From an uncultured Caproiciproducens sp. (GTDB lineage Bacteria; Bacillota; Clostridia; Oscillospirales; Acutalibacteraceae), in assembly GCF_963664915.1 (NCBI RefSeq), contig NZ_OY761810.1, positions 944,661-1,008,660 of the forward strand: a stretch of 64,000 bases of DNA, given 5' to 3'. Made by a program: the position numbers and the translations under genes. The notes under the pieces were generated by a model. It did no database searches. It was not told the origin of the DNA and was given only the letters and a program-made list of their open reading frames with translations. Positions 34,799 to 39,206 of this stretch are shown piece after piece. Position 1 is the stretch's first letter. Each line of letters begins with the position of its first letter.

Positions 34799-35254
34799 TT
34801 GAAAAGAATCATAAAATTATGCGCCGCGGTTCTTGCGGCCGCCGCTGTGTTCACGTTGGCGGGCTGTTCCGCACGCACTCCTGTCACGGCGGATGAATTT
34901 AAAAAGCAGGCGGAATCAGCCGGTTTTACGGTAACGGATTCTGCTTCCACCAACACAGATATTGAAAAATCCCTAAGTGCCGTCAAGAGCGAGACCGGCA
35001 CGGAGCTTGCGTTCGTTTCGTTCACGACAGAGAGCGCCGCATCGGAAATGTACGCCAAAGTCAAATCCAGCATTTCTGACGGAACGGGCGGAACCTCGAA
35101 TAACATCGATTCCTCTTCCTACAACAAATACACGCTTGTAAACGGCGAGCTGAACCATACACTGGTGCGCATGAATAAAACCATTGTGTACGGCAAGGCG
35201 ACCACAAGCTACAAAAGCCAAATGGACGACTTGTTCAAGGCAATTAAATACTAA
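34799..35254 (+). CDS. Small secreted lipoprotein
   Basis: A 151-aa protein with a lipoprotein signal: Lys-Arg start, hydrophobic Ala-rich core and lipobox LAGC (C at residue 23). The mature domain (about 125 aa) is mixed alpha/beta and ends with a helix before the C-terminus. The start is TTG 34799, ten bases after GGAGG. No known domain is recognised. The fold order (stretch around TELAFVSF, then helix, then strand and end helix DDLFKAIKY) resembles the partial protein at 63626, which ends EVTNLFKAFKK, so the two may be paralogues. Confidence 0.78.
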   Translation: MKRIIKLCAAVLAAAAVFTLAGCSARTPVTADEFKKQAESAGFTVTDSASTNTDIEKSLSAVKSETGTELAFVSFTTESAASEMYAKVKSSISDGTGGTSNNIDSSSYNKYTLVNGELNHTLVRMNKTIVYGKATTSYKSQMDDLFKAIKY

Positions 35255-35311: not shown

Positions 35312-35902
35312 TTAAAACAGTTTTCCGCCGGTGAAGCCTGCAAACGCCATGGACAGAATTCCAACGTAAATCAGCACGGCGGGAAGCCCGCTGAACGCTT
35401 TGGGCATATCCGCGTTTTCGCAGCTTTCCGACGTGCGGGAAAAGACAAGGGCGGCCAGGAAAAACGCCAAGCCCGTGCCGAGAGCAAACCCCACTGCATC
35501 GGTCAGGGTAAGCTTAAAGCTTTTCAGTACATACGGCATGGAAAGCACCACGGTATTGATTGCCGCCGGGGACAACAGCTGGCCGTACTTTCTGTAGAAC
35601 TGTGAAAAAAAAGTTTTCGCCAAAAATGCCGTTGCAATATATGCGACTGCGGCACAAAGGGCAAATACAGCCGGCCGCAAAACAATCAGCGTATCGCTGC
35701 CCGCAACGAACGGACCGAGCAGAAACCCCGCGAGCATGGAAATCAGCGTAAACAGCGCAACCAGAACAGAATACAGTCCGAGTGTTTTGGGTTTACGCCC
35801 CGCCCGAAGCACATGGCTGAACCCAATTCCCCCTGCAAAGAGGATATTTTCCGTGGTTACCGCCAAGAGCGCTGTTAAAATCATTTGCACAAAGACGTTC
35901 AT
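35312..35902 (-). CDS. RnfA-like membrane subunit
   Basis: A 196-aa protein with six predicted membrane helices, related to RnfA/NqrE. These proteins sit in the core of the Rnf ferredoxin:NAD oxidoreductase and help carry electrons through the membrane. It has an N-terminal TALLAVTTENILFAGGIG segment and LSPAAINTVVLSMPYVL near 110-126. It differs from canonical RnfA, in which a Cys-containing motif in the first helices binds a shared iron-sulfur centre: I see no Cys in the first two helices here. It overlaps the RnfE-like gene by 4 bases. Confidence 0.75.
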   Translation of the reverse strand: MNVFVQMILTALLAVTTENILFAGGIGFSHVLRAGRKPKTLGLYSVLVALFTLISMLAGFLLGPFVAGSDTLIVLRPAVFALCAAVAYIATAFLAKTFFSQFYRKYGQLLSPAAINTVVLSMPYVLKSFKLTLTDAVGFALGTGLAFFLAALVFSRTSESCENADMPKAFSGLPAVLIYVGILSMAFAGFTGGKLF

Positions 35903-36546
35903 ACGCGGGGCACCCTCCTTTTTTCGGCTTTCCGGCCGCGTTTTTCATTTGCCCACTGGACAAACGCGGCAAAAAATCCTAAAAGAATAAATCCGAAGAA
36001 CGGCAGGGAAACCCCCGCGTCCGCCGTACCGTACACCCCCATGTTGGTGTGCCAAAGACTGCCCTTAAGCCAAAATTCACGAATGGCGGCACTCAGGCAG
36101 ATTACCAGTGAAAACCCGACGGAGCACCCCACGGCGTCCGCGGCCACCGCCCATCCGATATGGGTCGGCGCGTAGTCGTTGGCACGGGACAGGACGACGG
36201 AATTGCAGATCATCAGACTTGCGAACATCCCCAAAGCGGTCACCGCTCCGGGAATCAGTTTGTCGGTCAGCCACGCGGCCGGCAGGTAGATCATAGCCGA
36301 AGCCGCCAGAACCAGTCCCGGGCGAATCCATACAGGCAACATTTCCCCCACAAGACAGAACAAAAGAGCCACCGGCAAAGAGATAAACAGAAACAAAAGC
36401 GACAGTTCAACCGCGTTTTTCATGTTATAGCCCGCGGCCACAACGGGATATAGCCCAAGCGCTCCGACAAGAACGGGATTTTTAAAAAATACCCCGTTCA
36501 GAAAGATTGTGTTTGTTTCACGAAGAAGACTTCTTTTATTCGTCAT
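35899..36546 (-). CDS. RnfE-like membrane subunit
   Basis: A 215-aa integral membrane protein of the RnfE/NqrD family. KNPVLVGALGLYPVVAAG (about 22-39) and FASLMICNSVVLSRAND (about 105-121) correspond to the conserved RnfE helices that normally carry the Cys-bearing NCAIxGRA motif; here one Cys remains (ICNS). I use the ATG at 36546; ATG 36555 abuts the GGGGG ribosome site. It overlaps the rnfD-like stop by 11 bases, so translation is coupled. Together with the RnfA-like protein it would form the heterodimeric membrane core. Confidence 0.75.
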   Translation of the reverse strand: MTNKRSLLRETNTIFLNGVFFKNPVLVGALGLYPVVAAGYNMKNAVELSLLFLFISLPVALLFCLVGEMLPVWIRPGLVLAASAMIYLPAAWLTDKLIPGAVTALGMFASLMICNSVVLSRANDYAPTHIGWAVAADAVGCSVGFSLVICLSAAIREFWLKGSLWHTNMGVYGTADAGVSLPFFGFILLGFFAAFVQWANEKRGRKAEKRRVPRV

Positions 36547-37513
36547 ACGGTTCATCCCCCAGTCTGAGCGCGCCGCACACCAGGGAATTGATCTGCGGAG
36601 CAGCGGCGTTGGCAATCAAGATCGCAAAGCTGGCTCCCTGTTCAAAGGCGCCAAAGCGGCGGAACATCATAATTACGAATCCCGCAAAAGCACCGTAAAG
36701 AATGCGGCCAATCGTCCTGTGCGGCGCGGTCACCGGATCGGTTATCATAAATACGGAACAGAAAAGCAGGGAACCGGACATCAGCTCGTATTTCACCGAG
36801 GTCAGCGCACTGCACGCAATCCGGGGAAAGAACGCCGCAATCAGTACGGCAACGACCAAAAACGAGGCCGTTATTTCCCATCTTGCCGTGCGTTTCAAAA
36901 ACAGAAACAGTCCGCATGCGCAGATAATCAAGATTCCGGTAGTTCCCAAAGGTCCCGCAAACACACCCCAAAGCATGTCGAGCGGCAGAATATCCGGCTT
37001 CAGCCCGCTTTTTAAAACAGCGGCGGGCGAACGGACCAGTTCAGCGGTAAAATTTTCATATGCGGGAATCGTCTGGGACACCGCGGGGTTGAAATAGGAA
37101 AACATCAGTTTTGGCCAGCAGAGCGTTGCAAAGGCAACCCCCGCAGCCGCCGGATTAAACGGCGTATGCCCGATGGAGCCGAACGGCATCTTCGCAACCA
37201 GAATTGCAAAGGCGGCCGCAGCGCAGGGCAGCCATAAAGGCGCGTTCAGCGGCATCAGCATCACAATCATCATACCCGTTACCATGGAGGAACAGTCTGA
37301 AAGGCTGATGCTTTTTGTTTGAATCAGGCTGAACAGGATTTCACACAGCGCACAGGCAAGCATCGTCACTCCCGCCATGACAAGGGGGCGTACTCCGTAA
37401 TGCACCACCGGCAGCACAAGCAGCATGGCAAGCGTAAACAGCACATCCCGCATCATGGAAGAAACGGAGGCTTCGCTTTTCACAAAAGGGGACCTTGCGT
37501 CATTTAATGTCAA
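36536..37513 (-). CDS. RnfD-like membrane subunit
   Basis: A 325-aa protein of the RnfD/NqrB family with about nine membrane helices. The GHTPFNPAAAG motif at 115-125 is conserved in the family. Canonical RnfD carries FMN covalently on a Thr in a GAT-P-L motif; here the aligned region reads LVRSPAAVLKSG (159-170), without that threonine. A serine could serve, but FMN attachment is doubtful. The TTG start overlaps the rnfC-like stop by 4 bases. Order C-D-E-A matches rnfCDGEAB minus G and B. Confidence 0.78.
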   Translation of the reverse strand: MTLNDARSPFVKSEASVSSMMRDVLFTLAMLLVLPVVHYGVRPLVMAGVTMLACALCEILFSLIQTKSISLSDCSSMVTGMMIVMLMPLNAPLWLPCAAAAFAILVAKMPFGSIGHTPFNPAAAGVAFATLCWPKLMFSYFNPAVSQTIPAYENFTAELVRSPAAVLKSGLKPDILPLDMLWGVFAGPLGTTGILIICACGLFLFLKRTARWEITASFLVVAVLIAAFFPRIACSALTSVKYELMSGSLLFCSVFMITDPVTAPHRTIGRILYGAFAGFVIMMFRRFGAFEQGASFAILIANAAAPQINSLVCGALRLGDEPYDE

Positions 37514-38538
37514 TCGAAGTCACCGCTTTTCTTGTATGACGCCGCTTTTGAAATGGCGGCGGTCAAATCTATTCCCGACGGGCACGCAACGGAACAGGCT
37601 GCGCAGCCAATGCATTTCTGTACGTTCGGCATTCTGACCGGGTCGGGCTTTGTGCTTTGTATTTCACGTAAAACCCTCCACGGCACAATGCCGCGCGGAC
37701 ACGCCCGCGCGCATTTTTCACAGCCGATGCAGGGATAGGATTTATTTCTCGGCGTTTTTTTCAGCGCGATCACACAGCGCGTCGCAGCCGTGACCGGTTC
37801 GGACAAATCGGTAACAGCCTTCCCCGTAACGGAAGAACCGGTAATGACAAGCGTCGTCTTTTCGCTCGCCTCGCACGCATCAAGCAGGAATTGCAGCGGT
37901 GTGCCGATACGCACCCGCATATTTCGCCAGTGTTCCACCCCATCGCCCGCCACAGTCACCACCGTAAAGCTCTGTGATTCGCTTTCATCAACAGCAGCGG
38001 TCAGCGCGGCACAGGCCTGCGCGCCGATATATGCGGCATTTTTGCCGGCGGCGAACAGCTTTCTCTTCAAAAGTATCCGCGCAGGGTACCGCTCACCGGC
38101 AAGAATCAAATCCGCCTGAGGGTTTATTTTTTTGATGATGCGCGCCTCTCTTGAGGTCGCAACAGCGATTTTATTTTCCGCGGCGCCGCACGCCCTTGCG
38201 GCGAGCACCAACCCGGCAATAATCGCATCCGTGTTTTCACGCAGCGTCGCCATAGCGCTTGTGGTGCACGGGTCTTCATCGAAGCAGCAGGCAACAATCA
38301 TGTCCGGCTTCAGTCGGCGCAGCCGTTTCAGCTTTTGGGAGAGCGCTGCTCCGTCGAATTCGTCAATAATCTGAGCGGCTTCGGCAGCGGCGATAATCGC
38401 ACCGTCGTCAAGCTTTCCCTGCCGCGCCGCAAGCGGCTGTGACGCCGCTATCCCTTCCGGAACGGGCAGAATCTTTATTTTATGTCTCAGAGAAGCAGTT
38501 TTTTCCTGCTCCAGCTTCACGCCATGCTGAAATATCAC
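37510..38538 (-). CDS. RnfC-like iron-sulfur protein, shortened and lacking the NADH/FMN loop
   Basis: A 342-aa protein (canonical RnfC about 430-450). The C-terminus has two intact 4Fe-4S motifs: C270, C273, C276, C280 (CIGCEKCARACP) and C309, C312, C315, C319 (CIGCAACSVACP). The central part aligns with RnfC through VTVAGDGVEHWRNMRVRIGTPL (194-215). The glycine-rich GxGGAxFP loop that binds NADH/FMN is not found, and the ECEP-like site is DEDP (87-90). It therefore seems unable to oxidise NADH in the standard way. First of the four-gene cluster, just after rpe. Confidence 0.75.
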   Translation of the reverse strand: MIFQHGVKLEQEKTASLRHKIKILPVPEGIAASQPLAARQGKLDDGAIIAAAEAAQIIDEFDGAALSQKLKRLRRLKPDMIVACCFDEDPCTTSAMATLRENTDAIIAGLVLAARACGAAENKIAVATSREARIIKKINPQADLILAGERYPARILLKRKLFAAGKNAAYIGAQACAALTAAVDESESQSFTVVTVAGDGVEHWRNMRVRIGTPLQFLLDACEASEKTTLVITGSSVTGKAVTDLSEPVTAATRCVIALKKTPRNKSYPCIGCEKCARACPRGIVPWRVLREIQSTKPDPVRMPNVQKCIGCAACSVACPSGIDLTAAISKAASYKKSGDFD

Positions 38539-38555: not shown

Positions 38556-39206
38556 TTATTTCAAATCGGCCGCCGCTTTCAAGTCGCTGATCGCCCGTTT
38601 CGCGTCGTCGGCTTTAAATACGCTTGTCCCCGCAACGCACACATCTACTCCCGCTTTAGCGGCCGTTCCGATCGTCCCCATGTGAATCCCGCCGTCCACC
38701 TGCACCAAAACATCCGGTCGACGGGCTTTCAGTGCGACGACTTTCTCCATCATGTTCTCCATAAAACTCTGGCCGCCGAACCCCGGTTCAACCGTCATGA
38801 CAAGCACCATGAAAAGCTTGTCCAAATACGGGAACACAGCTTCGGCCGGCGTACCCGGTTTAATGGATACCGCAGGTTTTGCACCGCCGGCCAGAATCGC
38901 GGCGATGGTCTTTTCCGGATCGGACTGTGCCTCCATGTGAAAGGTAATAATATCCGCCCCGGCGTCTAAAAAATCAGGAACATACCGGAGCGGTTCATCA
39001 ATCATCAGATGCACGTCAAACGGTTTATCCGTAAATTTGCGTACGGCTTTAATAACAGGCGCGCCAAATGTCAGATTCGGTACAAAATGACCGTCCATTA
39101 CATCCAGATGAATCCAGTCCGCACCGCAGACATCCATTCTGTTCACTTCATTCCCAAGCTGTGAAAAATCCGAAGAAAGCACCGAAGGTGCAATCAGCAT
39201 ATTCAT
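38556..39206 (-). CDS. rpe: Ribulose-phosphate 3-epimerase
   Basis: Interconverts ribulose 5-phosphate and xylulose 5-phosphate in the pentose phosphate pathway. The 216-aa TIM barrel has the signatures APSVLSSDFSQL near 6-17, IHLDVMDGHFVPNLTFG near 32-48, HLMIDEP near 65, VMTVEPGFGGQSF near 135 and VDGGIH near 173. Metal-binding His and Asp residues are present. It precedes the Rnf-like cluster by 17 bases, and may share its transcript. Confidence 0.95.
   Translation of the reverse strand: MNMLIAPSVLSSDFSQLGNEVNRMDVCGADWIHLDVMDGHFVPNLTFGAPVIKAVRKFTDKPFDVHLMIDEPLRYVPDFLDAGADIITFHMEAQSDPEKTIAAILAGGAKPAVSIKPGTPAEAVFPYLDKLFMVLVMTVEPGFGGQSFMENMMEKVVALKARRPDVLVQVDGGIHMGTIGTAAKAGVDVCVAGTSVFKADDAKRAISDLKAAADLK

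What the first reader, a model, noticed from the sequence alone, without database searches (positions are those of the whole stretch)
35312..38538. A four-gene Rnf-like complex that lacks RnfB and RnfG and has a degenerate RnfC
Canonical rnfCDGEAB encodes a ferredoxin:NAD+ oxidoreductase. Here only C, D, E and A-like genes are present, with 4-11 base overlaps, so they are one coupled unit. The RnfC-like protein has two perfect 4Fe-4S motifs but has lost the GxGGAxFP NADH/FMN loop. RnfD lacks the covalent-FMN threonine (SPAAVLK in place of GATPL). RnfA/E keep the fold but have few of the Cys residues expected in the membrane iron-sulfur centre. Unless B and G are elsewhere, this would be a different electron-transfer complex: ferredoxin-like centres attached to a membrane core, without NAD chemistry. 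That combination is, to my knowledge, poorly described.
Basis: partly seen in the sequence, partly recalled or inferred. Interest (0 to 1): 0.8.

Follow-up and report, generated by a model that had tools for sequence, protein, structure and literature searches.

The report
Rnf-derived complex without its electron circuit
A group of anaerobic bacteria carries, beside the normal ion-pumping Rnf enzyme or instead of it, a conserved stripped-down copy that has lost the parts needed to carry electrons through the membrane, which suggests that an ion pump was turned into something else, perhaps a transporter switched by the cell's redox state.

Summary
The four genes are real: rnfC-, D-, E- and A-like, 35312-38538 minus strand, directly behind rpe. 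The same genome (near Caproiciproducens) also has a complete rnfCDGEAB plus apbE about 1.28 Mb away, so B and G do exist elsewhere. That does not explain the window set away. It belongs to a family of 103 distinct loci compared here (rpe upstream in 90); among the 30 best matches in a 291-genome class sample, only same-order genomes had it. Near relatives show purifying selection (dN/dS 0.08-0.27). Two genomes (98% and 85% complete) carry a C-D-E-A set and no detected RnfB or RnfG. Losses: all four [2Fe-2S] cysteines of A/E in the window, at most 2 kept in any of 92 loci; ApbE motif of D in 0 of 103; the RnfC NAD/FMN loop is replaced by a conserved DExDG. Retained: both RnfC [4Fe-4S] motifs (80-81 of 81) and, where C is present, the RnfD riboflavin-pocket residues. 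Some lineages keep only D-E-A, a few only C-D. Best reading: an Rnf-derived alternating-access complex, uncoupled from the redox pump, with C-D as a redox input. Function is inferred, not shown. New variant of a known kind.

The parts
37510..38538 (-). RnfC-like protein (342 aa): no RnfC_N domain found, residual NuoF/SLBB part, two [4Fe-4S] motifs
38350..38364 (-). DEFDG motif (residues 59-63 of C) in place of the GxGGxGFP NAD/FMN loop
   Evidence: alignment position; in 81 aligned RnfC-like proteins D and E each stand in 75
37699..37731 (-). first 4Fe-4S motif of C (C270, C273, C276, C280)
   Evidence: 81 of 81 rows at each Cys
37582..37614 (-). second 4Fe-4S motif of C (C309, C312, C315, C319)
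   Evidence: 80-81 of 81 rows at each Cys
36536..37513 (-). RnfD/NqrB-like membrane protein (325 aa)
   Evidence: PF03116 5.6e-74
37028..37030 (-). Ser162 of D at the covalent FMN position, ApbE motif lost
   Evidence: motif in 0 of 103 diverged, 28 of 32 canonical rows
37154..37156 (-). Asn120 of D, equivalent of riboflavin-pocket Asn124 (C. tetanomorphum numbering)
   Evidence: role from PMC9588780 (passages)
36737..36739 (-). Asp259 of D, equivalent of riboflavin-pocket Asp248
   Evidence: PMC9588780 (passages)
35899..36615 (-). RnfE/NqrD-like membrane protein (238 aa from TTG; likelier start ATG at 36546); cluster Cys replaced by Tyr56 and Ser139
35312..35902 (-). RnfA/NqrE-like membrane protein (196 aa); cluster Cys replaced by Ser29 and Thr117
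38556..39206 (-). rpe, ribulose-phosphate 3-epimerase, 17 bases upstream of C; conserved genomic neighbour
   Evidence: PF00834 1.2e-70; upstream in 90 of 103 loci

Best explanation
An Rnf-derived four-subunit membrane complex that arose by duplication of an rnf operon with loss of rnfG and rnfB, and that no longer runs the Rnf electron circuit. Shown by sequence: loss of the A/E [2Fe-2S] ligands, of the RnfD flavinylation motif, of RnfG and RnfB in the unit, and of the RnfC NAD/FMN loop; retention of both RnfC [4Fe-4S] motifs and, where C is present, of the RnfD riboflavin-pocket residues and of the proline of the RnfD N-arm (the arm that is buried in RnfC in solved Rnf); purifying selection; modular forms C-D-E-A, D-E-A and C-D. 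Inferred mechanism: the RnfA/E pair, which in Rnf is the alternating-access Na+ path, works without its cluster as a cation (or cation-coupled) transporter; RnfD is the junction; RnfC's clusters exchange single electrons with a cytosolic carrier such as ferredoxin and with riboflavin in RnfD, so that the redox state of the cell gates the transporter. In lineages that lost C, D-E-A would run ungated.
For: Of 92 loci with both A and E, 45 keep 0 of the 4 cluster Cys, 46 keep 1, 1 keeps 2. At three of the four sites Ser/Thr are common (A 60 and 48 of 92, E 74 of 98; background 11%), and the neighbouring Asn is kept (A N116 0.90 with C, 0.95 without; E N138 0.81 and 1.00). RnfE Arg of the Na+-path ion pair is kept in 71 of 98. 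RnfC ferredoxin Cys columns 80-81 of 81; DExDG 75 of 81, where canonical RnfC has the three loop glycines in 31 of 31. RnfD pocket Asn 76 and Asp 73 of 81, arm Pro 74 of 81 with C. dN/dS 0.08-0.27. A 12-row C-less clade is starred 99; 10 of its 12 genomes were searched and hold no second RnfC of this kind. G042 and G004 lack B and G. That RnfA/E is the Na+ path and alternates access is from PMC11889175 (passages).
Against: No transport, redox or expression data; no structure could be predicted. At the fourth cluster site (E, first Cys) Ser/Thr stand in only 2 of 98; Cys is kept in 27, and the second Cys of A in 23 of 92. RnfE E115 of the Na+ path is kept in 25 of 98 and is Asn in the window; the RnfA position that I take for E88 is Glu in 0 of 92. 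Cys to Ser/Thr is also an easy neutral change. C-D-only loci (L055, L056, L058; their genomes have just the two canonical PF02508 genes) show that C-D can persist without the supposed transporter, and the pocket Asn is Q and I in two of them. C presence against pocket Asn rests on 1 starred and 3 total independent contrasts, not significant; L142 lost C but kept Asn; Asp is kept in 10 of 14 rows without C. Some copies are broken: the E-like gene of L057 has an inner TGA, and C or D is split in L082 and L097.
Confidence: 0.35

Rival explanations
1. One-way electron-transfer complex: ferredoxin reduces the RnfC clusters, electrons go to riboflavin in RnfD and on to a membrane or external acceptor; A/E only hold the complex.
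For: The ferredoxin Cys and the riboflavin pocket are kept where C is present; C-D-only loci exist; two-gene Nqr/Rnf-like complexes whose RnfD-like subunit lacks the covalent site are proposed to send electrons outward (PMC10979944, passages).
Against: FMN-side Asn90 of RnfD is kept in 0 of 103 and Glu185 in 1 of 103, the ApbE motif in 0 of 103, no RnfG was labelled beside these sets, and D-E-A persists without C in 8 genera of one clade.
Confidence: 0.25
2. Redox-free transporter or envelope-associated assembly; the RnfC clusters are structural and C is an accessory.
For: C is absent while D-E-A stays in a 99-starred clade and in L142 and L057 (three changes on the best tree, one forced by starred branches); an apparently membrane-anchored DUF4015 putative glycosyl hydrolase follows A in 41 of 90 loci.
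Against: Each cluster-ligand column of RnfC is Cys in 80-81 of 81 rows; the riboflavin-pocket Asn is mostly kept with C (76 of 81) and mostly lost without it.
Confidence: 0.25
3. Accessory or alternative subunits of the canonical Rnf of the same cell, borrowing its RnfB and RnfG.
For: The full rnfCDGEAB-apbE operon is in the same genome, and a canonical RnfG is found in most of the 60 relatives.
Against: G042 (98% complete) and G004 (85%, same genus) have C-D-E-A sets and no match for the RnfB FeS domain or RnfG; A/E lack the cluster that B and G would serve.
Confidence: 0.05
4. Decaying paralogue on the way to loss.
For: Loss of many defining residues; some lineages have lost E-A or C; no diverged D in G008 (85% complete); broken copies in L057, L082, L097.
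Against: D frame open in 10 of 11 genus genomes, dN/dS 0.08-0.27, a newly conserved DExDG motif.
Confidence: 0.04

Closest known systems
Rnf complex (ferredoxin:NAD+ oxidoreductase, RnfABCDGE)
   Same: Homologous C, D, E, A in the order C-D-E-A; both [4Fe-4S] motifs of C; riboflavin-pocket residues of D; A/E match the Rnf-Nqr family
   Different: No B, no G in the unit; no [2Fe-2S] ligand set; no flavinylation motif; NAD/FMN loop replaced by DExDG; no RnfC_N domain in the window's protein
Na+-NQR (NqrABCDEF)
   Same: Proposed to descend from a duplicated rnf that lost RnfB, with an RnfC homologue (NqrA) without redox cofactors (PMC4014512 and PMC12174285, passages)
   Different: NQR keeps the [2Fe-2S] between NqrD and NqrE, covalent FMNs and NqrC, and has NqrF; here no gene in place of B or G was found and C keeps its clusters
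Two-gene Nqr/Rnf-like complexes (NqrB/RnfD-like plus NqrC/RnfG-like)
   Same: RnfD-like subunit without the covalent FMN site (PMC10979944, passages)
   Different: Those have an RnfG-like flavinylated subunit and a PF00175 NAD domain and contain only two apparent subunits; the window set has A, E and C and no G
Four Rnf genes of strain BL-6 (relative of Clostridium jeddahense)
   [quoted passage not shown] its relative C. jeddahense JCD, here Faecalispora jeddahensis JCD locus L086, has rpe-C-D-E-A
   Different: Not analysed further in the passages seen; that BL-6's four genes are this set is my inference

Membership tests
Rnf complex | Homologous C, D, E, A genes in one unit | tested here: met
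Rnf complex | RnfB and RnfG encoded in the unit | tested here: not met
   absent in the window; with two-sequence profiles and within the fetched flanks none labelled beside the 103 diverged loci
Rnf complex | Four Cys for the A/E [2Fe-2S] cluster | tested here: not met
   0 of 4 in the window; at most 2 in any of 92 loci
Rnf complex | ApbE flavinylation motif in RnfD | tested here: not met
   0 of 103 against 28 of 32 canonical
Rnf complex | NADH/FMN loop GxGGxGFP in RnfC | tested here: not met
   DExDG instead
Rnf complex | Two [4Fe-4S] motifs in RnfC | tested here: met
Rnf complex | Ferredoxin:NAD+ activity with ion pumping | not testable with these tools
   needs biochemistry
Na+-NQR | NqrF and NqrC in the unit | tested here: not met
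   ORFs of the region; only PF02508, PF03116 and ferredoxin/SLBB matches
Nqr/Rnf-like two-gene complex | RnfG-like subunit and PF00175 domain, only two subunits | tested here: not met

The most novel reading that the evidence does not exclude
The alternating-access core of a redox-driven sodium pump has been turned into a cluster-free transporter, with oxygen ligands (Ser/Thr/Asn) where most of the [2Fe-2S] ligands sat, and with a leftover half-circuit (RnfC clusters plus RnfD riboflavin) as a redox switch that several lineages have since discarded.
Probability: 0.28. Interest if true: 0.85.

Novelty: new variant of a known kind. Interest (0 to 1): 0.62.

Why it matters
Rnf is thought to pump ions because a membrane [2Fe-2S] cluster makes RnfA/E alternate access (PMC11889175, passages). 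A conserved natural family without the ligands for that cluster makes directly testable whether the core can move ions without redox drive, and would be an evolutionary exit from Rnf other than NQR. Practically, such genes match Rnf families, so genome-based energy models of these anaerobes (gut bacteria and caproate producers among them) can count a pump that is not there.

Tried and rejected
Rejected: pseudogene or local decay as the general explanation, though single copies are broken (L057, L082, L097); completion by B and G from the canonical operon; simple Thr-to-Ser loss at the FMN site, since 6 of 32 canonical RnfD, the genome's own among them, have Ser there; rpe as a key to function, taken as a positional neighbour only (inference).

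Led nowhere or weak: phylogenetic test of C presence against the RnfD pocket Asn, too few independent contrasts. Position of L062 (G042) is unsure: with long rows included it falls among canonical D (support 84); without them it lies on the branch between both groups (diverged alone 100, diverged plus L062 96), so it is either the earliest member or a second case. In the larger tree the diverged rows were joined by unstarred branches (84-91) and two rows of other types fell among them. dN/dS is by a simple count method and several dS values are near or above 1. Paper searches listed no paper that I recognised as describing such a complex, except the BL-6 sentence; only open-licence papers are held, and most hits were seen as listings. 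One search (DUF4015) found one paper, seen as a listing. Canonical A columns rest on 2 full sequences because most canonical loci were cut inside A.

Rows dropped: loci repeating the last 200 aa of another D (110 labelled to 103); A, E and C rows scoring 60 bits or less. Of the 22 loci counted as without C, L033, L081, L087 and L123 end at or near a sequence end, so C may be missing only from view there.
Full report
WHAT IS THERE. Four overlapping minus-strand genes at 35312-38538 encode RnfC-, D-, E- and A-like proteins. rpe ends 17 bases upstream of C (identity).

THE GENOME. The window is G000 C1:944661-1008660, a single 3.1-Mb contig, 98.9% complete. The same genome holds a full canonical rnfCDGEAB at C1:2265594-2270534 with apbE at 2270768-2271838.

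CONSERVATION. By my reading, a diverged D is present in 10 of 11 genus genomes, 17 of 26 other genomes of the family and 5 of 23 other genomes of the order (two of the five, L058 and L062, uncertain). A named-genome scan gave 184 confirmed stretches, of which the best 80 were kept. After removing repeats, 103 distinct loci were compared. rpe lies upstream on the same strand in 90 of 103; several of the other 13 end at contig edges. With two-sequence profiles for RnfG and RnfB, none was labelled beside these sets within the fetched flanks, whereas in canonical relatives G stands between D and E. In 291 genomes drawn across the class 218 have a D match; the 6 best, the window's own and five from the same order, are this kind, and the next 24 loci read all have G. 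Only the 30 best were read, so cases lower down are not excluded. dN/dS between the window and four genus relatives is 0.08-0.27 for the four genes, against 0.04-0.17 for canonical C, D, E and G in three pairs.

RESIDUES. Of 92 loci with A and E, 45 keep none, 46 one and 1 two of the four cluster Cys; canonical E keeps both in 28 of 28, canonical A in 2 of 2 full sequences. RnfC keeps each ferredoxin Cys in 80-81 of 81, while the loop whose three glycines are in 31 of 31 canonical proteins becomes DExDG: D 75, E 75, G 75 of 81, invariant in a 22-row alignment. RnfD has the ApbE motif in 0 of 103 against 28 of 32 canonical. FMN-side Asn90 is kept in 0 of 103 and Glu185 in 1 of 103, but the riboflavin-pocket Asn124 and Asp248 (numbering checked, roles from PMC9588780, passages) stay in 76 and 73 of 81 loci with C, and the N-arm proline in 74 of 81. 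Without C these are 6, 15 and 3 of 22. In the tree subset they are 33, 34 and 36 of 38 with C, and 1, 10 and 1 of 14 without. So Asn and Pro follow C, Asp hardly does; the losses are few on the tree and the test is not significant.

MODULES. Forms seen: C-D-E-A (most); D-E-A (in a 12-row C-less clade starred 99, two of whose rows, L060 and L061, have D alone, plus L142 and L057); C-D (L055, L056, L058). Of the 12 genomes of that clade 10 were searched with a profile of this RnfC: the eight D-E-A genomes gave strong matches only to their canonical RnfC. E in these often bears a long acidic tail. With long rows left out, the 27 diverged D form one side of a branch with support 100.

NOT BORROWED PARTS. 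G042 (98% complete) has one D, a C-D-E-A set (L062), no match for the RnfB FeS domain and none for RnfG; G004 (85%, same genus) likewise. G021 (79%) has no RnfG match, and its one FeS-domain match lies in a 451-aa frame. G009 (87%) has an FeS match in a 577-aa frame and a partial RnfG match at E 4.6e-4. RnfB frames in these genomes are mostly about 260-310 aa.

ORIGIN. In G046, G059, G038 and G039 the canonical rnf is followed on the same strand by a DUF4015 gene (25 of 60 genomes have a DUF4015 match); the diverged set is followed by one in 41 of 90 loci, median gap 27 bases (14 of 14 scanned match PF13200). This suits descent from rnfCDGEAB-DUF4015 with G and B excised (inference). The window's own genome has no PF13200 match.

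MECHANISM. In Rnf, RnfA/E is the Na+ path, alternating access under control of its [2Fe-2S] cluster (PMC11889175, passages; PMC12174285, passages). Here the cluster ligands, the donor B and the acceptor G are missing, so the pump stroke of Rnf as described cannot run. What remains could pass electrons between RnfC's clusters and riboflavin in RnfD, 11.7 A apart in Rnf (PMC9588780, passages). I infer a transporter core (D-E-A) with a redox input (C-D). Rivals are an outward electron path and a redox-free transporter; both remain open.

KNOWN OR NEW. NQR is proposed to come from a duplicated rnf that lost RnfB (PMC4014512, passages). Two-gene Nqr/Rnf-like complexes show an RnfD-like subunit without the covalent site (PMC10979944, passages). 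Strain BL-6 was reported to have only four rnf genes (PMC7764203, passages). Two papers list rnfCDEAB, without G but with B (PMC11456536, PMC10215811, passages). I found no description of a complex lacking the A/E cluster ligands.

Noticed in passing
G046:C43, G059:C18, G038:C13, G039:C12; 41 diverged loci, e.g. L040:10171-11451: An apparently membrane-anchored DUF4015 (PF13200) putative glycosyl hydrolase is encoded directly behind canonical rnf operons in four genomes and behind 41 of 90 diverged sets; its link to Rnf is unexplained.
   Followed up: partly
L043:8052-9296, L045:8469-9962, L047:6225-7427, L048:8177-9349: RnfE-like proteins of C-less lineages carry long acidic, apparently disordered C-terminal tails, some with a similar short motif near the end (SMDDIF in L047, SLDDII in L042, SVEEII in L048).
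   Followed up: no
L047:5418-6191: A CAP-domain (PF00188) gene sits between the D- and E-like genes.
   Followed up: no
L062:6032-11645: C-D-E-A followed by DUF4015 in a genome without a detected RnfB or RnfG; either the earliest member of the family or an independent repeat of the same losses.
   Followed up: partly
L055:2967-5321, L056:8896-11580: RnfC-like proteins of 784 and 894 aa with long low-complexity tails, paired with D only, no E or A beside them.
   Followed up: no
L063, L064, L059: Further partial Rnf-D loci of other types (e.g. C-D plus a weakly RnfG-like protein with an intact NAD loop and ApbE motif in L064), not the same as the window set.
   Followed up: no
L049:15983-17314: A further RnfC-like gene (443 aa) about 5 kb from the diverged set; partial ones also in L108 and L120.
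   Followed up: no
window 34799-35254, +: Small lipoprotein-like ORF converging on the A-like gene; 17 neighbouring ORFs of the compared loci cluster in one group of this type.
   Followed up: no
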